Below are positions 2-46,697 of a DNA stretch of 64,000 bases, in pieces. The stretch lies in NCBI GenBank assembly GCA_019359445.1, contig JAHHHJ010000007.1, forward strand, positions 62,001 to 126,000, read 5' to 3'. Numbering within the stretch: position 1 is the first letter of the stretch; every line of letters begins with the position of its first letter. The DNA comes from Kastovskya adunca ATA6-11-RM4. Lineage in GTDB: Bacteria; Cyanobacteriota; Cyanobacteriia; Cyanobacteriales; Coleofasciculaceae. The notes below the pieces were generated by a model, which had not been told where the DNA came from, did not search any database, and saw nothing but the letters and a program-made list of their open reading frames with translations. Both the position numbers and the translations under genes were made by a program.

Positions 2-694
2 TTTGAGCAGCAACCTCACAAAGACTTAGCCGGGGTCTTAGTCGATTGCCTAAGCAGAGCCGAGGGTTACAATTTATCGATTCAGGAACTTAATGTTGGG
101 GGTGGCTTAGGGATTCGTTATACAGAAGGGGATGATCCCCCAAGCATTGATACCTGGGTAAAGGGAGTGTGTGAGTCCTTGGTGGCAGCTTGTGAGGCAG
201 AGCAGTTGCCCTTACCGAGATTGTTATCAGAGCCAGGGCGATCGCTCGTTGGTTCTGCCTGCATCACGGCTTACACCCTCGGTAGCCGCAAGGAAATTCC
301 CGGTATACGTACCTATCTAGCTGTAGATGGTGGCATGTCAGATAATCCTCGTCCGATTACCTACCAGTCTGTCTACCGCTGCGTCGTCGCCAACCACATG
401 TCTGCTCCATTAACCGAAAAAGTCACAGTTGCTGGAAAACACTGCGAGTCCGGGGATATTCTAATTAAAGACGTCATGCTCCCTCAGACAGAGTCAGGAG
501 ATATTTTCGTTGTCATGGGCACAGGTGCCTACAATTACAGCATGGCTTCTAATTACAATCGGCTACCCCGACCGGCAGCAGTGTTGGTTAATCAGGGAGA
601 TTCTTTCCTGATTTTGCAGCGGGAAACCTATCAAGATCTTCTTCGGCAAGATCGTTTGCCAGAAAAACTGCAAACGGGCGATAGTAAAAAGTAA
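2..694 (+). CDS. lysA: Diaminopimelate decarboxylase, C-terminal part (cut by window start)
   Basis: This enzyme removes CO2 from meso-diaminopimelate to give lysine, using PLP. The frame is open from base 2, so about 230 C-terminal residues are present and the start lies outside the window. Recognisable motifs are EPGRSLVGSA (PLP phosphate region) and CESGDIL (active-site Cys of the fold-type III decarboxylase dimer). Met-Ser-Asp-Asn-Pro-Arg-Pro near residue 115 is also typical of LysA. It is followed 93 bp later by cdaA and uppS on the same strand. The family assignment is firm. Whether the three genes are co-transcribed is inference. Confidence 0.93.
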   Translation, partial: FEQQPHKDLAGVLVDCLSRAEGYNLSIQELNVGGGLGIRYTEGDDPPSIDTWVKGVCESLVAACEAEQLPLPRLLSEPGRSLVGSACITAYTLGSRKEIPGIRTYLAVDGGMSDNPRPITYQSVYRCVVANHMSAPLTEKVTVAGKHCESGDILIKDVMLPQTESGDIFVVMGTGAYNYSMASNYNRLPRPAAVLVNQGDSFLILQRETYQDLLRQDRLPEKLQTGDSKK

Positions 695-787
695 AAAGAC
701 CAACTTTTTTGGCTGTTTGCCCGTCTAAGTTTTTAAGATCTAGCCAAAGCCAAGCAATCTCGTAGCAAAATTCTTCACTAAAGTTCA

Positions 788-1705
788 ATGCCTTCGTCGG
801 GTCCTGGTTTCGACCCTAGCTGGACTCAGTCCTTAGTGCTTCACAGCATTGATGTGGGATTGGTTCTGGCACTTACTTACATGGTGCTCCTGATCATTGG
901 GGAGCGCCGCACCTTGTGGATGGTTCGCGGATTGATTGTCCTGATGCTGGCAGCAGCTATCAGCAATCGCTTAGGGCTAGGGCTACTAAGTTTTGTGCTA
1001 GAAAAGTTGGTGGTTGGCTCGGCAGTGGCGATGGCAGTCATCTTCCAGTCCGAGTTTCGTCGGTTCCTAGAACAGTTGGGACGGGGAGAAATTCTCCAAC
1101 TGTTTCAAGCGAAACGACGCCCACCACCTAAGCCCGATAGCGTAATTGATGAAATTGTTGATGCTGTTAAAGAACTCTCCCAAAACCGAATCGGCGCGCT
1201 GATGCTTGTCGAAACGGGGGGACCGATTGACGAACGAGATGTTTCTGTGCCGGGTGTACAGTTAAATGCTGAAATTTCTAAAGAATTGCTACAAACGATC
1301 TTTCAAACCTCTACACTGTTGCACGATGGAGCGGTGCTGGTTCGGGGATCGCGTGTGGTAGCAGCGGGAGTGATTTTGCCCCTTTCAGACCGTACCGCAT
1401 CGCGGCAGTTGGGTACGCGCCATCGGGCAGCGATGGGAATTACAGAGCGAGTCGAAAATTGCTTATGTATTGTTGTGTCTGAAGAAACAGGTTCAATTTC
1501 TCTGGCGGAAAGGGGGGCACTGAACCGACCATTGACCAGCAACAAGCTAAAAGAATTATTAGAGGCACGATTTTCGACCTCTGTTGACCGCGAAGCAGTT
1601 GCTCCAGGTTTGCGTAGTTTGAGCCGCCGCCTTGGGTCTGGTGGACGGACACTGCTGGCGCGTTTCTTCCGTCTTCCGTCATCGACGTCTAGGGAAAAGA
1701 AATGA
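788..1705 (+). CDS. cdaA: Diadenylate cyclase CdaA
   Basis: This protein makes the second messenger c-di-AMP from two ATP at the membrane. The 305-residue protein has hydrophobic segments at about residues 20-38, 45-59 and 64-86, then a DAC domain with the DGA motif at 180-182 and RHR at 211-213. These are the two nucleotide-binding signatures of the family. A basic Ser/Arg-rich tail follows the domain. Its stop overlaps the uppS start (ATGA type), so the two are translationally coupled. c-di-AMP is known to control potassium and osmotic balance, and its pairing with a cell-wall lipid gene is common. Confidence 0.93.
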
Positions 1706-2451
1706 CTGCAAAGCCGACTGCCTTACAAGAGTTACCGGCTGACCTCGATCGATACCGCTTGCCGAAACACGTAGCGGTGATTATGGATGGAAATGGTCGT
1801 TGGGCAAAACGTCAGGGACTGCCCAGAATTATGGGGCACCGCCGAGGGGTAGATGTCCTCAAAGACTTGCTGCGCTGTTGCAAGGATTGGGGTGTACCTG
1901 CACTAACGGCTTATGCCTTTTCGACAGAAAACTGGGGGCGTCCCTTAGAAGAAGTCGATTTTTTGATGATGCTGTTTGAGAGGGTATTGCGGCGAGAACT
2001 GCAAGAAATGATGCAGGAAAATGTGCAAATTCAGTTTGTGGGAAATTTGTCTGCTCTGCCGCAATCTCTCCAGGATGAAATTGAGCGCTCGGTGAATGAC
2101 ACTAAGCAGAATCGGGGCATTCAGTTCACTGTTGCCACGAATTATGGGGGACGTCAGGAAATTTTGCAGGCTTGTCAGGCGATCGCCTCTGCGGTGCAGC
2201 AAGGTAAGCTACAGCCGGAAGAGATTGATGAGGAATTGTTTTCTCGCCATCTCTACACTGCCCATGTTGGCGATCCCGATTTGCTGATTCGTACCAGTGG
2301 CGAAATGCGCCTCAGTAATTTTTTACTGTGGCAGATGGCTTATGCAGAAATGTACATCACGGAAGCCCTATGGCCCGACTTTGACCGGGCAGAATTTCAC
2401 CGGGCTTTGTGTGCTTATCAGCAGCGCGATCGCCGCTTTGGGAAAGTGTAG
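1702..2451 (+). CDS. uppS: Isoprenyl transferase (undecaprenyl diphosphate synthase)
   Basis: A cis-prenyltransferase that extends FPP with IPP to make the C55 carrier lipid for peptidoglycan and polysaccharide export. The 249 residues carry the family signature MDGNGRWA (residues 28-35, catalytic Asp29), the GHRRGV segment at 45-50, and the C-terminal DLLIRTSGE motif with Arg and Ser contacts to IPP diphosphate. Length is normal for UppS. The ATG overlaps the cdaA stop by 4 bases. No defects seen. Confidence 0.95.
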
Positions 2452-2517
2452 GGATTGGGGACGGGTGTGGCGGGAATTAAACAGGCAAAAGAGACTTTTC
2501 GGTTTTACTGAATTTTT

Positions 2518-2790
2518 CTAGGGGCCAGAAAAAATCGCATCTTCTACGTCTTCGCGGCTTAGAGAGTATTTGAATGAACGTTTTACAGCCCGTCCACCTT
2601 CACCTACGTTGAGGTAGCGCACCGCTAGTTCTTCAACTTCTAGGTAAATTTCAGCTTGCCAATGGATTTGTTCAACACGCCAGCAGTGGAGATCTTCAGG
2701 GTCTTGTTCGCATCCCTGGGAGCGCAACCACTGCTCAATATCAGGGAGGGGATGATTATACAAAGGGGTATCGGCTGACGGAAGAGTCAT
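2518..2790 (-). CDS. DUF3143 family protein
   Basis: A 90-residue soluble protein. The segment LYNHPLPDIEQWLRSQGC followed by a Trp-rich strand (CWRVEQIHWQAEIYLEVEE) and LNVGEGG matches what I recall of the cyanobacterial DUF3143 family. The function is unknown. It sits directly after the DnaJ-domain gene with only 2 bases between stop and start, so the two are almost certainly co-transcribed. That pairing suggests a chaperone-related or assembly role, but this is inference only. Confidence 0.75.
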   Translation of the reverse strand: MTLPSADTPLYNHPLPDIEQWLRSQGCEQDPEDLHCWRVEQIHWQAEIYLEVEELAVRYLNVGEGGRAVKRSFKYSLSREDVEDAIFSGP

Positions 2791-2792
2791 AG

Positions 2793-3368
2793 CTATTTTG
2801 AGGGGTTATAGAGACTGAGGAGGTGTAGTGAGGGATTCGACTTGAGCCGATGGGGAATCGTTGGGGCGTTTGGGGCGAGGGGTTGCAGGGAGACGACTTG
2901 TTCTTGTACAGGCACATTTTGTTGTTCAGACCTTTGAAAGGCAGCATCGCCGCGTGTTAAGCCAATAGCGATCGCTAGTATCACACAACCCAAGAATGTC
3001 AGCCCCAGAACGAATAAAGCAAAGAGTTCCCCGGCGGAGAGAGGACGGTCAGTGGGATCGAGGTAAGCGTTATTGGATCGTTGCGGTTGTCTCGGACAGC
3101 TAGGGGGATTAAATCCAGGAGGGACTTGAATCACATTCAGGCGCGAATAGCCAATTTTCTGGTCATAAAGCCGCCGCCGCTCTAGGTTGCTGAGAGTAGC
3201 ATAAGCTTCGTTGATCTGCTGGAACTTGGCAGTGGCTACCGCAGCCGGCAGGTCAGTTGTATCGGGATGGTAATGTTTGCTCAGTTCCCGATAGGAGCGA
3301 CGGATTTCGATGGGTGAGGCTGAGGGATGTAAGCCTAGAAGGGTGTAGTAACTGATTGAATCTGACAT
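2793..3368 (-). CDS. J-domain protein with one membrane segment
   Basis: The N-terminal J-domain carries YYTLLGLHP and the HPD tripeptide that stimulates DnaK ATPase. A linker follows, then one hydrophobic segment (ELFALFVLGLTFLGCVILAI) and a Pro/Gln-rich tail. There is no Gly/Phe-rich region or zinc-finger domain, so it is not a general DnaJ but a specialised membrane-anchored J-protein. The frame stays open to a GTG at 3410. I prefer the ATG at 3368 because the J-domain starts just after it. Neither start has a clear ribosome-binding site. It is closely followed by the DUF3143 gene. Confidence 0.85.
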   Translation of the reverse strand: MSDSISYYTLLGLHPSASPIEIRRSYRELSKHYHPDTTDLPAAVATAKFQQINEAYATLSNLERRRLYDQKIGYSRLNVIQVPPGFNPPSCPRQPQRSNNAYLDPTDRPLSAGELFALFVLGLTFLGCVILAIAIGLTRGDAAFQRSEQQNVPVQEQVVSLQPLAPNAPTIPHRLKSNPSLHLLSLYNPSK

Positions 3369-3500
3369 CCCTTGCTCTTGGGTAGGTTGCCTGACGCTTT
3401 CTGGAGCCACCGCAGTTTCACTTTTTGCTGATCAGTTCAGTCTTTGATGACCATTTTAAGCGATCGCACGCTTGCCCAAGCTAAAACGCTGATTGTCAGT

Positions 3501-4913
3501 CTACTGATTGTTTTTTCTTGTTAGTTGCTCTCTATATTGAGCGACCACACCATAAATTGCGGCGAGTAACACCCAAGTTAGCAAATTCACTCGCACATCA
3601 AAGAGCGTTACATCTAGAAAGTTAAAAAGGGTACAGCTAGCAAATGCTAGTAAATAACTGAAAAAGATTAATTTGTCATCTTTTCCTACTTGGGCTTCTA
3701 AGGTGGGGATATCTGACCACTGGTTTAAAAGTAAAACACTTGCAGCTAAAATCCAGCCAACTAAGCCACAAAATAATAGGGTAGCGGGGATGCCAATTTC
3801 TGCCATTAACATCAGAAATAAGTTGTGGGGATGTCCTAACCAAAGCTGCATTTTGGCTTCGTAGAGGGGAGTAAAGTTCCGTAATCCCCAACCAAGCCCA
3901 GGGCGTTCTTGAGCCATCGACCAAGCAAAGCGCCATTGAGTTGTCCGTAGCTGGGCTACAGGACGATCGGGATAGAGTTGGTCTGAAAGCCGCAGCCAGA
4001 AGTAGGCGGGGAGGAAGCTACGCAGCCATTGACGCCCCACTGAAGGGCCAAAGGATGCCCAAAGGATACTGGCGGCAAAACCTGCGGCTCCTGCGACTAG
4101 TAAGCGCCAACCTTGGTAGAGAGCAAAGGCAAGACCACTTAAAAGCGCGATCGCCCAAGCATTACGAGAACTGGTTAAAATCAGCGCGATCGCATTCCCG
4201 ATTACCAGCCCACTCAAAAACAACAGCCAGCCCGGACGCTTCATTCCTCGCTGTCGCCAAGCTTGCCATGCTTCTACCCACAAGCCCAATCCCAGGATCA
4301 AAATAATCTGGAGATAAACCGCGAGGATGTTGGCATACATAAACAAAGAAGCCATTCGCCCCGGTGGATTTCCCTGGGGTCTAAGTGACCATCCCAAAAT
4401 GCCCTGAAGCACGCCTTCTGGGCCAACCCAACCCCAAAAGATCTGTCCAAAGCCGAGCAAGACAATAGGTACAGAAGCGATCGCCAAAAGCTTTGCCAAT
4501 TGCCGCAGTTGATGGGGATGCTCAATTAAGGCACTGAGTCCAGCAAAGACAAAGAAAAACGGCAAAAAGTTTGCCAAACCCAGAAATGCCGCCGGACGGT
4601 CAACCGCAAAGCAACAACTGATAATCAGCCCGATGCTCAAGATTGCCAATCCCCAGTTGAGGGGTCGGCGGATAATGGTGCGGCACTGTTGCTTCCAGGC
4701 AGCGACGCTCACAAAAAATAGCCCTAATCCTCCCACCAAGGGCAATAAGGGCAATAAAAATGCCAAGATTTGGGCAAAATTCCAGGTACCCTGAAAATTA
4801 GGTTCAGGATGCCGACTCAAAAGGTTTTGAGTTTTGAGTTTTAAGTTATGGATTAACGCCTTACTCCTCACGTTACAAGCTGAATTCCTGGGGATTAAAC
4901 CGCTTCCCAGCAC
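3501..4913 (-). CDS. O-antigen ligase/polymerase-like multi-spanning membrane protein
   Basis: A polytopic membrane protein of up to 470 residues with about ten to twelve hydrophobic helices. Its large central loop holds the Wzy_C-type pattern (LTSSRNAWAIALLSG, then RTTQWRFAWSMAQERPGLGWG and a GHPHNLFLMLMAEIG helix). The His-containing GHPHN motif is typical of WaaL/Wzy enzymes, which join or polymerise lipid-linked glycans. Cyanobacterial relatives have been named IctB (bicarbonate transport), but this function is disputed and cannot be judged here. The first 35 or so codons contain a dispersed repeat (4824-4856), so the native start may be the TTG near 4820. Confidence 0.8.
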   Translation of the reverse strand: MLGSGLIPRNSACNVRSKALIHNLKLKTQNLLSRHPEPNFQGTWNFAQILAFLLPLLPLVGGLGLFFVSVAAWKQQCRTIIRRPLNWGLAILSIGLIISCCFAVDRPAAFLGLANFLPFFFVFAGLSALIEHPHQLRQLAKLLAIASVPIVLLGFGQIFWGWVGPEGVLQGILGWSLRPQGNPPGRMASLFMYANILAVYLQIILILGLGLWVEAWQAWRQRGMKRPGWLLFLSGLVIGNAIALILTSSRNAWAIALLSGLAFALYQGWRLLVAGAAGFAASILWASFGPSVGRQWLRSFLPAYFWLRLSDQLYPDRPVAQLRTTQWRFAWSMAQERPGLGWGLRNFTPLYEAKMQLWLGHPHNLFLMLMAEIGIPATLLFCGLVGWILAASVLLLNQWSDIPTLEAQVGKDDKLIFFSYLLAFASCTLFNFLDVTLFDVRVNLLTWVLLAAIYGVVAQYREQLTRKNNQ

Positions 4914-43154: not shown

Positions 43155-43463
43155 CTATTTGACAGTGTAGGCATCAACGTCAACTGCATCAGCACTATAC
43201 CCTTCAGCATCAGAAGCAACAGCTCCAGCATCCCGTGCCTTTAGACGCTGCGAGAGCATTTGAGAAATTTCTGAAATCAGCAGTGTCAAAATAACGCCGT
43301 CATCAATCCACCCGATTACGGGGATGAAATCCGGGGCAATATCAATTGGGCTAAAAAGATAAGCTAAAGACCCTAGAATTAACCACCAGCGATATTTGGG
43401 GTTACGGATGGTGCTGCGATACCAGTTATAAAGTGATTGGATTGAAAAATTATTCATTAGCAA
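43155..43463 (-). CDS. YkvA family (DUF1232) protein
   Basis: 102 residues. The hallmark segment PKYRWWLILGSLAYLFSPIDIAPDFIP with VIGWIDDGVILTLLISEI is typical of DUF1232, a small membrane-associated domain of unknown function. The C-terminal 25 residues are Ala/Asp-rich and non-conserved. The first ATG at 43463 is followed two codons later by a second. It lies next to tRNA-His and upstream of the IscB element. Confidence 0.88.
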   Translation of the reverse strand: MLMNNFSIQSLYNWYRSTIRNPKYRWWLILGSLAYLFSPIDIAPDFIPVIGWIDDGVILTLLISEISQMLSQRLKARDAGAVASDAEGYSADAVDVDAYTVK

Positions 43464-43838
43464 ACCATTTAGTTAGTTACTTTTATGCTTTTATATTGAC
43501 AAACTTTGCTGATGAATTCTGGTGCGGATAACCCCCCTACTTTTGTCGAGTTTGCTAAAGGGGGCAGAGAAGGCATCCCAGTAGTTCAGCTCCCCGACTT
43601 CTCTCATAAGTAGGAGATATCGCCTTCAGTATGGGAGCGATCGCATTAGTAAGATAAACATCATTCGCGATCCCAAACTACCCGCGTTAGCCTTCGCTCA
43701 GCCTGATAGAGTACAATCCCTCGGTAATCAAGTCACATCCTGAAGAAAAACCTCCGTAAAATCGCGGGGCTTTTCCTGAATTGACAAATCCATCAGGAAA
43801 AATGATGTCAGTTCTACAGAGACTGATGCCGTCATGAA
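43464..43838. other. Spacer left of the IscB element
   Basis: 375 bases with no gene. It carries the second copy of the TCCCCGACTTC repeat (43587-43622). At 43772-43801 is TCCTGA..TCAGGA, a possible left-end hairpin of the adjoining mobile unit. The exact left boundary of the element was not fixed. Confidence 0.5.
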
Positions 43839-44089
43839 CCCCATGCCTAAAGGCAGGGGCTTGTAGACTCCCCGACATTTTGAGCGGGATACAAGCCACA
43901 ACATGACCAGCCTAAGACCTTCGAGGTCTACGTTTTCACGCGTCATGATACCTACAAATGCGTCGCTAGTTTGTAGCTCTATCGTTGGTTGTTAAACATC
44001 TGTAGTGGGTTAAGGAAGTGCAGCCAACCCAACAAGCCTGGAAAACATTGGCGAAGCGAACGTTACGAGCAATTAGAGGAGACGCAACA
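43839..44089 (+). ncRNA. Candidate HEARO / omega-RNA of the IscB element
   Basis: Directly upstream of the IscB start lies a dense series of hairpins: CCCC(A)TGCC/GGCAGGGG (43839-43859), GCTTGTA/TACAAGC (43859-43896, CCCG/CGGG inside), CATGAC/GTCATG (43902-43947) enclosing AGACCT-TCG-AGGTCT (43915-43929), CTACAAA/TTTGTAG (43952-43976), and GGGTT/AACCC near 44010-44030. HEARO RNAs are known to lie immediately 5' of IscB-type HNH genes and to serve as guide RNA with the guide at the 5' end. Identification rests on position and structure, not on a covariance search. Confidence 0.65.
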
Positions 44090-44136
44090 ATGTCTAACTT
44101 TGTCTTTGTAGTGAGCTGGTTCGATTTGACCTGCAA
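44090..44136 (+). pseudogene. iscB: 5' fragment of iscB, out of frame after internal deletion
   Basis: ATG at 44090 opens MSNFVFVV, which is how IscB proteins begin. The natural continuation (a short PLMP domain, RuvC-I, bridge helix) is missing. The next bases join at GAGCTGGTTCGATTTGAC (ELVRFD), the RuvC-II segment, but in another frame, so the 5' frame ends after 16 codons. About 180 residues appear lost, by comparison with known IscB layout. Confidence 0.75.
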
Positions 44137-44997
44137 TTGATGCAAAACCCTGAAATCTCAGGTGTGGAGTATCAGCAGGGGGAACTTCAAGGCTACGAGG
44201 TTCGAGAGTATTTACTCGAAAAGTGGAACAGAAAATGTGCTTACTGCGGGGCGGAAAACCTACCGCTGGAAATCGAACATATTCAACCACGCTCTAGGGG
44301 CGGTTCTGACCGAGTTTCTAATCTGGCACTTGCTTGCCATCCCTGTAATCAAGCCAAAGGAAATCAGGAGGTTCGAGAGTTTTTGGCAGACAAGCCTGAC
44401 TTGTTGAGCCGCCTTCTCAAGCAGGCGAAATCCTCGCTCAAAGATGCGGCGGCGGTCAACTCGACCCGATGGGCGTTGTTCAACGCACTGAAGGAAACCG
44501 GACTGCCTGTTGCTATAGGAACGGGGGGACAAACCAAGTTCAATCGCCTTCGACTCAAGCTGCCTAAAGCTCACTGGATTGATGCGGCGTGTGTGGGTCA
44601 TGCGGTCACTGAGCCGCTTGCCCTGAGCAGTTCGGCAAGCTCTCTGTATCACCTTGCCGAAGGGTACCGAAGTGTCGATTCGCTCGAAGTGTTGACCTCA
44701 AAACCGTTGCTGATTGCGGCAAAAGGGCATGGAACCCGCCAGATGTGTGGCACTGATAAGTATGGGTTTCCCACACGGCATCGCTCACGAGTGCAGATTC
44801 ACAAAGGGTTTCAGACTGGCGATATTGTTGCTGCAACCGTTACAACAGGTAAGAAAATCGGCTTCTATGTGGGGCGGGTTCTTTGCCGCGCTTCTGGCAA
44901 TTTTGATATTGCCACTTCATCTGGAAGAGTGGCTGGTATTAGCCACAAATATTGCCAAGCAATTCACAAAAAGGATGGTTACTCCTATGGATTCTGA
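44137..44997 (+). CDS. iscB: IscB remnant: HNH and RuvC-III open frame
   Basis: 286 residues from TTG at 44137 (ATG at 44140). HNH nuclease: Cys34/Cys37 in CAYCG, His48 in [13 protein letters not shown], Asn62, Cys67/Cys70 and Asn71 in [11 protein letters not shown], all intact. Ruv[13 protein letters not shown] with Asp149. The C-terminal region [22 protein letters not shown] and GFQTGDIV matches IscB. RuvC-I and the bridge helix are absent, and RuvC-II (ELVRFD) lies just upstream in this frame but before any start codon. Residues 155-181 are a repeat-derived insertion. The frame is intact, so a product may be made, but it could not act as a full IscB. Confidence 0.85.
44598..44690. repeat. 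Dispersed repeat inside the IscB remnant
   Basis: TTGCCCTGAGCAGTTCGGCA and CTTGCCGAAGGGTACCGAAG belong to the same repeat as at 40560-40600, where TTGCCCTGAG and TTTGCCGAAGGGTCGAAGTG occur in reverse complement. The stretch splits the expected VG-(S/T)P-LEVL sequence of IscB and keeps the frame. Confidence 0.75.
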
Positions 44998-45162
44998 TTC
45001 AAGGCGACTGAAGTCACTGCCGCTTTCCTCCCCATGTCTAAAGCTAGGGGCTTCTCGCTCGTTTTCTGGTGACTGTGCTTGGCAAGGGGCAGCTTATCTC
45101 TAAAATTGGAATGGCTGTCAGTTTTTTTCGGTATGGGGAATGTACGGAGGTACGAGTAAACC

Positions 45163-45855
45163 GTGAATATTTTACAAATCTTTGAAAGAGGCGGCGTGGC
45201 GATGTGGCCACTGCTAGTCTTATCAATCTTGGCACTCGGTACAATCATTGAGCGCATCTGGTTTTGGGCAAGCACTTTAACTAAGGAACGGCAGGTTGTT
45301 AACCGTGTCTTGGAGGCAACAGAACGCGATTGGGGCATGGCTGCTGAAATTGCCCAATCAGCGAGAAGACAGCCGATTGGGCGGTTTTTATATACACCTT
45401 TACGACTCGCTAACCCCGAGCCGGAAGTGTTTCGTCTGGCGTTGGAATCCGCAGCGGATGAAGAATTAGCAGGAATGCGACGGGGAGACAAGCTGTTAGA
45501 AGCTGTGATTGCTTTGGCACCCTTATTAGGGTTGCTCGGTACTGTTTTGGGATTGATTGAGTCCTTGGGTTCGATTCGGATTAGCGACCTTGGTACAGCG
45601 TCCACGGCAGGTGTAACCTTGGGAATTGGGGAAGCCCTGATTAGTACAGCGACGGGATTAATTGTGGCGATCGCGAGTCTCGCGTTTTACCGATTGTTTC
45701 AAGCGCTGTGGTACAACCAGGTGAAAGTTTTTCGGAAAGCGGGAAGCCTGTTAGAGCTGCGCTACCGAGAAGATTGGCCCCACGCCGATCTCACACCCAG
45801 ACCTGTGAGTACAAATCCTGAGATTTCTGGTATTTCCGAAGTTCGGGAAAGCTAA
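45163..45855 (+). CDS. exbB: MotA/TolQ/ExbB proton channel family protein
   Basis: 230 residues. The three membrane segments are at about 12-32 ([19 protein letters not shown]), 110-130 ([20 protein letters not shown]) and 155-175 ([20 protein letters not shown]), with the conserved [10 protein letters not shown] and the Thr/Ser-rich [11 protein letters not shown]. It forms a proton-driven pore with ExbD. Start is GTG with GGAGG 12 bases upstream. It lies 72 bases before exbD. The substrate system (TonB, Tol or other) is not shown. Confidence 0.92.
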
Positions 45856-45926
45856 AACTCAAGGCAGTACTATAGCGCTAGCCTTCTTGTGTAAGATGAC
45901 CGCACCGCCCCAGGATTGATGTCTTT

Positions 45927-46697
45927 ATGAAGAGTAAATCTCCTTCCGCTCCTTCTCCCCTTCCTCCACGCCCGCTGCGGCTTCAGATGGATCACCAGTC
46001 TGAAGAGGTTCGGATCGAACTGGTTCCTTTGATTGATGTCATTTTCTGTATCCTGACGTTTTTCATTCTGGCAGCAGTAGGACTGTCTCGCCAGCAGGCA
46101 ATCAGTGTGGATTTGCCGAAAGCGGGTACAGGAACCTCGCAAATGCGGGAGCTTTTGATTGTTAGCCTGGATGATTTTGGGCAAATTTTTGTAGAACAAC
46201 AGCCTGTAACGACAAGAGAGCAGTTTGAGCAGGCTTTGCAGAACTATCGCCGGATTAATCCTGATGGAATGATGGTGCTGTACGCCTCCAGGAACGCCAG
46301 TTACAACGAAGTTGTGCAGGTGTTGGATATCCTGCGGGAAGTAGGAGGCGATCGCGTCGGACTGGCAACCTTACCGGGTTCTGAGACCGCACCCCAACCA
46401 GCTCCCGGTGGAGTGCCTCCAGTTCCTGGGTCTGCTGATTTGACGCCGTATCCGAACTATACGCCCTTTGACCCGGCGCAACCACCATTTCCCGTCGCGC
46501 CCTTTGATCCCACCCAGCCTCAAATTCCGGCTGCACCAGGGCAACAGCTACCGGGACAACCGGGAATTATCCCTGGCAGTCCTCTGCCACCAGGGTCACC
46601 AGGAATTAGCCCAAATATCGCCCCTCTTCCTGCTCCTGGCGGTACTGCCACTCCTAGTACTAACTCGCCTTCTGGTGGAACCAACTCCACACCATAA
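45927..46697 (+). CDS. exbD: ExbD/TolR family protein with proline-rich tail
   Basis: 256 residues. A short cytosolic N terminus, one membrane helix (ELVPLIDVIFCILTFFILAAVG, with the conserved functional Asp), and the periplasmic ExbD domain to about residue 150 (FGQIFVEQQPVTTREQFEQAL, GDRVGLATLPG). From residue 155 a tail of about 100 residues rich in Pro, Gly and Ala follows (FDPAQPPFPVAPFDPTQ). The tail is unusual for ExbD, which is normally about 140 residues. It is not TonB by sequence. Partner of the preceding gene. Confidence 0.9.
   Translation: MKSKSPSAPSPLPPRPLRLQMDHQSEEVRIELVPLIDVIFCILTFFILAAVGLSRQQAISVDLPKAGTGTSQMRELLIVSLDDFGQIFVEQQPVTTREQFEQALQNYRRINPDGMMVLYASRNASYNEVVQVLDILREVGGDRVGLATLPGSETAPQPAPGGVPPVPGSADLTPYPNYTPFDPAQPPFPVAPFDPTQPQIPAAPGQQLPGQPGIIPGSPLPPGSPGISPNIAPLPAPGGTATPSTNSPSGGTNSTP

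What the first reader, a model, noticed from the sequence alone, without database searches (positions are those of the whole stretch)
44090..44160. IscB gene with a precise internal deletion joining its first eight codons to RuvC-II
MSNFVFVV (44090) is followed at once by ELVRFD (44113), in another frame. In known IscB about 180 residues (PLMP domain, RuvC-I, bridge helix) lie between. The spacing from the RuvC-II Glu to the HNH His is 55 residues, as in intact IscB. The HNH and RuvC-III parts stay open, so selection may act on a nuclease fragment, or decay is recent. This is the most unusual locus of the window.
Basis: partly seen in the sequence, partly recalled or inferred. Interest (0 to 1): 0.82.

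Follow-up and report, generated by a model that had tools for sequence, protein, structure and literature searches.

The report
Broken transposon nuclease gene with deletion
A cyanobacterial mobile element has lost about a third of its RNA-guided nuclease gene (IscB) in one deletion while keeping its guide-RNA gene and its ends; this is ordinary decay of a transposable element, seen with different breakpoints elsewhere in the same genome and in relatives.

Summary
A complete HEARO (omega-RNA) gene at 43831-44066 is followed by the first eight codons of iscB (44090), joined out of frame to the RuvC-II codon block (44113); HNH, RuvC-III and the C-terminus stay open to 44997. About 145 residues are missing on a profile of intact relatives (178 against the intact copy of the same genome). 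It is not a chance match: the 66 bases left of the junction equal a sister copy exactly. The RuvC-II Glu has no usable start codon before it. The fragment shows no decay (0 of 48 invariant columns changed), but comparison with a sister copy that has a different deletion suggests the two parted while functional, so the deletion is probably recent; nothing shows that the fragment is selected. The class is not rare: of 104 HEARO elements examined, 49 have an intact iscB, 43 have none detected, and 12 are broken, 6 of these by large internal deletions. I read it as a defective HEARO/iscB element of the IS200/IS605 type, low interest. The boldest reading left is that its omega-RNA still serves the intact IscB encoded elsewhere in the genome.

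The parts
43831..45072 (+). whole HEARO/iscB element (homology to sister copy C35 begins and ends here; boundaries good to a few bases; ATGA lies at the left end)
   Evidence: blastn and alignment with C35 and C31 copies
43831..44066 (+). HEARO (omega-RNA) gene, complete
   Evidence: Rfam RF02033, 148.5 bits, model 1-211/211; region 96.5% identical to C35 (283 bp), 92.5% to C31 (280 bp)
44090..44140 (+). leader ORF: first 8 iscB codons plus 8 out-of-frame codons, stop TGA overlapping ATG 44140 (TGATG)
   Evidence: translation; identity with C35 up to the junction
44112..44114 (+). deletion junction (ambiguous by 1 base): codon 8 joined to the RuvC-II block; about 440 bp missing by spacing in relatives, 533 bp against C31
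44113..44136 (+). RuvC-II block ELVRFDLQ, present in the DNA but with no ATG/GTG/TTG before it in frame, so probably untranslated
   Evidence: first start listed in this frame is TTG 44137; first residue aligns to OgeuIscB chain position 193
44140..44997 (+). residual iscB reading frame (285 aa from ATG; TTG at 44137 possible): HNH, RuvC-III, C-terminal part
   Evidence: for 44113-44994: NF040563 guided_IscB 241.6 bits (cut-off 175) over profile 154-314; PF01844 HNH 49 bits
44599..44670 (+). in-frame insert (approximate limits) with a short dispersed repeat, after ...WIDAACVG
   Evidence: gap in C31 in the alignment; own-genome place C27:106623-106665 (window 44623-44665) matches the repeat probe at 84%

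Best explanation
This is a defective copy of a HEARO/iscB insertion element (IS200/IS605-like, with an omega-RNA gene upstream of iscB). A single deletion of about 440 bp, with almost no homology at the breakpoints, removed the PLMP domain, RuvC-I and bridge helix and shifted the frame. The nuclease is most likely inactive. The HEARO RNA and both ends remain, so the element could at best be moved by a TnpA in trans, and its omega-RNA could at best work with the intact IscB on contig C31. The remaining HNH/RuvC-III frame is open because the deletion is recent, not because the fragment is selected. Shown: anatomy, intact paralogue, independent second deletion, recurrence in relatives, lack of decay. 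Inferred: loss of activity, recency, and any trans mobilisation or use of the RNA.
For: HEARO at full model length directly upstream. The genome has 4 HEARO over the cut-off: C31 with an intact 456-aa IscB, C35 and the window internally deleted, C16 with no iscB detected. C35 keeps residues that the window lost and lacks what the window keeps, so the two deletions are independent. Window against C35 over 108 shared codons (seam codons left out): 12 synonymous and 2 nonsynonymous differences, dN/dS 0.048; at both nonsynonymous positions the window has the state most common in the six outgroups shown, 4 of 6 and 6 of 6. 0 of 48 invariant and 0 of 74 near-invariant columns changed, against 77 intact rows, 75 of them distinct. 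Survey of 104 HEARO elements: 49 intact, 43 none detected, 12 broken, 6 of these by large internal deletion. Insertion seen only here: 0 of 13 relatives' loci that hold both flanking genes have a HEARO or IscB. HEARO-only elements occur as near-identical modules with different flanks in one genome (L198/L200, 97% over 490 bp). Y1 transposase domains occur in the genome (6 matches).
Against: No reads: assembly error is not excluded. No match with this junction was found anywhere else, so mobility of this derivative is unproven. [quoted passage not shown] The lack of any decay and the TGATG overlap at 44138-44142 are also what a translated, selected fragment would show.
Confidence: 0.9

Rival explanations
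1. The fragment (HNH-RuvC-III-C-terminal part, from ATG 44140) is translated by coupling from the 16-aa leader and kept by selection as a small HNH protein, for example a nickase or an inhibitor of the intact IscB.
For: A ribosome-binding-like AGAGGAG precedes ATG 44090 and the leader stop overlaps ATG 44140. HNH motif scores over cut-off. No change at 48 invariant columns. Window against intact relatives dN/dS 0.05-0.09.
Against: The dN/dS and the conservation are expected from the intact ancestor; a recent deletion gives the same values. TGATG arises from the native Leu-Met codons in the shifted frame. No match running through the junction in the other 56 genomes. In OgeuIscB the PLMP domain and bridge helix contact the omega-RNA or guide (PMC9640706, passages), so the fragment should not bind the RNA normally. 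Sister copy C35 kept other parts.
Confidence: 0.04
2. Assembly or sequencing error: the deletion is a misjoin between similar iscB copies.
For: Several similar copies exist in the genome, and reads were not available.
Against: A misjoin usually needs a shared repeat, but the breakpoints share at most 1 base. The contig is 240 kb. To the right of the junction, up to about 44600, the only own-genome match is C31 at 74% nucleotide identity, so no near-identical copy could have supplied it. Independent deletions exist in C35 and in relatives.
Confidence: 0.04
3. A genuine small nuclease type comparable to IsrB or IshB (IscB-like proteins lacking one nuclease domain).
For: It lacks one region and keeps another in good order.
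Against: IsrB lacks HNH (recalled), here HNH is present. IshB as recalled has PLMP plus HNH, here PLMP is gone. No match running through the junction elsewhere. 69 of 80 GTDB homologues have one full-length domain; the 11 exceptions have other layouts or start at a contig end.
Confidence: 0.02

Closest known systems
IscB (NCBIfam NF040563) with HEARO/omega-RNA (Rfam RF02033)
   Same: Same protein family over RuvC-II, HNH and RuvC-III; complete HEARO RNA directly upstream of the start codon
   Different: PLMP domain, RuvC-I and bridge helix deleted; frame broken; RuvC-II Glu has no standard start codon before it
Internally deleted or non-autonomous IS200/IS605-type elements (PATE/MITE-like; names recalled)
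   Same: Ends and RNA gene kept, coding interior lost; intact copy present in the same genome
   Different: No second copy with this junction was found, so mobilisation after the deletion is not shown
IsrB (HNH-less relative) and IshB (PLMP plus HNH); definitions recalled
   Same: IscB relatives lacking part of the domain set
   Different: Here HNH is kept and PLMP/RuvC-I/bridge helix are lost; one copy, no conserved family seen

Membership tests
IscB RNA-guided endonuclease | Match to NF040563 above its cut-off | tested here: met
   241.6 bits against 175, but only profile positions 154-314 of 314
IscB RNA-guided endonuclease | HNH domain | tested here: met
   PF01844, 49 bits, cut-off 21.4
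IscB RNA-guided endonuclease | PLMP domain, RuvC-I and bridge helix in one open frame | tested here: not met
   About 145 profile positions after codon 8 absent; frame shifted
IscB RNA-guided endonuclease | HEARO/omega-RNA directly upstream | tested here: met
   RF02033 at 43831-44066, 148.5 bits
IscB RNA-guided endonuclease | RNA-guided DNA cleavage | not testable with these tools
   Needs a cleavage assay
IsrB (definition recalled) | No HNH, intact split RuvC | tested here: not met
   HNH present, RuvC-I absent
IshB (definition recalled) | PLMP plus HNH, no RuvC | tested here: not met
   PLMP region deleted after codon 8; RuvC-III part present
Defective/non-autonomous IS200/IS605-type element | Both ends kept, interior coding part lost, intact relative in the genome | tested here: met
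   Homology to C35 and C31 at both ends; intact C31 gene
Defective/non-autonomous IS200/IS605-type element | Derivative itself mobilised (several copies with the same junction) | tested here: not met
   Junction found once in the own genome; no match running through it in the other 56 genomes
Defective/non-autonomous IS200/IS605-type element | Y1 TnpA that could act in trans present in the genome | tested here: inconclusive
   6 PF01797 matches, one with a stop inside; their match to these ends was not tested

The most novel reading that the evidence does not exclude
The deletion leaves a working omega-RNA gene without its own nuclease: the window's HEARO RNA, 92.5% identical to that of the intact IscB on C31, is loaded by that IscB in trans, so that a single nuclease copy protects or cuts at several element sites, with broken copies acting as guide-RNA genes only.
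Probability: 0.12. Interest if true: 0.45.

Novelty: new member of a known kind. Interest (0 to 1): 0.15.

Why it matters
As a single locus it matters little. The survey around it gives a small picture of how HEARO/iscB elements decay in these cyanobacteria: the nuclease gene is lost in many ways while the RNA gene and ends persist. This makes the question of trans-acting omega-RNAs testable in one genome with one intact IscB and three other HEARO genes over the cut-off.

Tried and rejected
Chance match of eight residues: rejected, since 66 bases up to the junction equal C35. Deletion shared by descent with C35: rejected, because the two losses are different and partly complementary. Repeat-mediated deletion in the window copy: rejected, the breakpoints share at most 1 base; it is the likely origin of C35. 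Orthologous insertion in relatives: the 13 fetched loci of relatives that hold both flanking genes (of 19 relatives' loci) have no HEARO at Rfam's cut-off and no IscB match; one 26-bp HEARO-like blastn match in L253 lies beyond the first gene, outside the gap. Intergenic gaps there are about 250-1200 bp against about 1700 bp here. Selection on the fragment: window/C35 dN/dS 0.048 over 108 codons (0.184 over 112 codons when the repeat seam is counted) is no evidence for it, because that divergence is best placed before the deletions. A structure prediction was not run, as a fold from homologues would not tell decay from function. Literature (rows listed, not all hits): IscB plus HEARO, IshB/IsrB, internal deletion/truncated/cyanobacteria (15 of 22 listed), PLMP/bridge helix, in trans/standalone (15 of 83 listed); no listed title or opening of an abstract describes such deletions. 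Three papers were opened for passages only (PMC9640706, PMC12477157, PMC9755519). Altae-Tran 2021 was not read. Limits of the survey: the 100 relatives' loci were taken from the top of the list, leaving out the own copies and some near contig ends (G042:C183, G022:C70, G042:C66, G019:C19), and that list was itself cut; weak HEARO copies are under-represented. 'None' means no profile match on the same strand within about 2.5 kb (1.5 kb for own loci). Some rows are orthologous pairs (L051/L053), so they are not independent.

Full report
What is there. The window holds a complete HEARO RNA at 43831-44066 (Rfam RF02033, 148.5 bits, model 1-211 of 211). It is followed by ATG 44090, which reads [16 protein letters not shown] and stops at 44138-44140. 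From 44113, in another frame, the DNA encodes ELVRFD... open to 44997. That part scores 241.6 bits against NCBIfam guided_IscB (cut-off 175), over profile 154-314 only, and carries an HNH domain (PF01844). Its first residue aligns to position 193 of the OgeuIscB chain 7xht (192 in 7utn), and E193 is named as a RuvC catalytic residue in PMC9640706 (passages). The Glu-to-HNH-His distance is 55 residues, as in the intact copy (rows).

Not chance. The 66 bases up to the junction (44048-44113), the eight codons included, are identical to the C35 copy of the same genome. The RNA gene before them is 96.5% identical to C35 and 92.5% to C31, with small gaps. The match to C35's N-terminal part ends at the junction. 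A 221-bp junction query against 57 genomes (own included) runs through the junction only in the window; elsewhere matches break at about query positions 70 and 74 (candidates were capped at 14 in many genomes). About 145 profile positions are missing relative to 28 intact relatives, or 178 residues relative to intact C31, which carries an extra insert.

What the deletion does. It removes the PLMP domain, RuvC-I and the bridge helix (domain places by alignment and recall). In OgeuIscB the PLMP domain contacts the RNA hairpins and stabilises the complex, and bridge-helix arginines anchor the guide seed (PMC9640706, passages). The RuvC-II Glu codon has no ATG, GTG or TTG before it in frame; the first starts are TTG 44137 and ATG 44140. 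So a translated fragment would hold HNH, RuvC-III and the C-terminus but neither RuvC-I Asp nor RuvC-II Glu. The leader stop overlaps ATG 44140 (TGATG), which would allow coupling; it comes from the native Leu-Met codons read in the shifted frame.

Age and selection. Against 77 intact rows (75 distinct), the window fragment differs at 0 of 48 invariant columns, 0 of 74 columns with at least 97% identity and 1 of 104 with at least 90%; the intact controls have medians of 0, 0 and 2. C35's C-terminal piece differs at 2 of 19 invariant columns, both in its repeat seam, where it is misaligned. Window against C35 over 108 shared codons: 12 synonymous and 2 nonsynonymous differences, dN/dS 0.048; with the four seam codons it is 0.184. 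At both nonsynonymous positions the window has the commonest outgroup state (4 of 6 and 6 of 6). The two copies therefore most likely parted while functional, and each was deleted later: C35 keeps profile 1-56 and 318-424, while the window lost all but the first eight codons of the former and keeps the HNH. A recent deletion explains the clean fragment; selection is not needed, and it is not excluded.

How the deletions arose. C35's joint lies in a run of short dispersed repeats and stays in frame. Similar repeats sit after VVTE in C31 and C35 and after ACVG in the window (sequences). A 139-bp probe of them finds 22 matches in the genome at E up to 0.01, itself included, and the exact 16-base core occurs 8 times against 0 for the reversed control. 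Recombination between two in-frame repeat inserts is the likely origin of C35 (inference). The window's own junction shares at most 1 base between the two sides, so it is an illegitimate join.

Context. The element lies between a minus-strand gene (43155-43463) and a plus-strand gene pair (45163-46697; YkvA-like, ExbB and ExbD are names from recall). Of 19 relatives' loci fetched around the ExbB-like gene, 13 hold the first gene beside it; none of the 13 has a HEARO or IscB match. The own genome has 4 HEARO over the cut-off and a fifth match below it: C31 with intact iscB, C35 and the window internally deleted, C16 without iscB. It has 6 Y1 transposase matches, one with a stop inside. PMC9755519 (passage) says HEARO sequences are only sparsely found near TnpA, which speaks against an easy transposase link.

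How common. I classified 104 HEARO elements: the 4 own ones and 100 places from the top of the list (fetched; some near contig ends left out). 49 have an intact iscB (48 by profile plus C31), 43 have none detected downstream on the same strand, and 12 are broken. Of the 12, six have large internal deletions (window, C35, L059, L067, L191, L201); two of the relatives' four (L191, L201) stay in frame across the joint. The other six have frameshifts or stops, an insertion or a truncation. The HEARO RNAs of L059, L067, L191 and L201 are complete. HEARO-only elements recur as near-identical modules in one genome, such as L198/L200 (97% over 490 bp, flanks unmatched) and L197/L209 (93% over about 465 bp; left flank of L197 cut by the contig end), which suggests mobilisation in trans. 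In a separate set of 80 GTDB homologues (the best 80 of 189), 69 have one full-length domain; that set was chosen by similarity to the fragment, so it is not a rate.

Verdict. A decayed HEARO/iscB element: a new example of a known kind, of low interest. The reading that remains open and testable is the use of its complete omega-RNA by the IscB of C31.

Noticed in passing
L003 (G000:C35:147592-150824), 1757-2353: A second internally deleted iscB in the same genome: about the first 56 profile positions joined in frame to the last about 107 through short dispersed repeats; 198-aa open frame from ATG, complete HEARO upstream.
   Followed up: yes
L004 (G000:C16:137746-140986), 1501-1741 minus strand: HEARO RNA without a detected iscB in the same genome, with a copy of the CCTTCGGCAAGCTCAG-type repeat inside it (C16:139427-139442).
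   Followed up: partly
window about 44599-44670; L001; L003 1898-2036: Short dispersed palindrome-like repeats inserted in frame in iscB at two different sites; the C31 gene carries one and stays open.
   Followed up: partly
L113 (Microseira wollei NIES-4236, NZ_BLAY01000038.1) 2-3702: iscB split at profile position 191 by about 2.4 kb holding a reverse-transcriptase-like frame (by eye) and a group II intron match (RF00029, 2923-2999).
   Followed up: partly
L191 and L201 (both G016): Two iscB copies of one genome with different internal deletions that stay in frame across the joint; L191 leaves a 318-aa ORF lacking about profile 99-205.
   Followed up: partly
L133 (Baaleninema simplex PCC 7105) 1385-3861: A truncated iscB (profile 4-244) lies directly upstream of a full-length iscB.
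   Followed up: no
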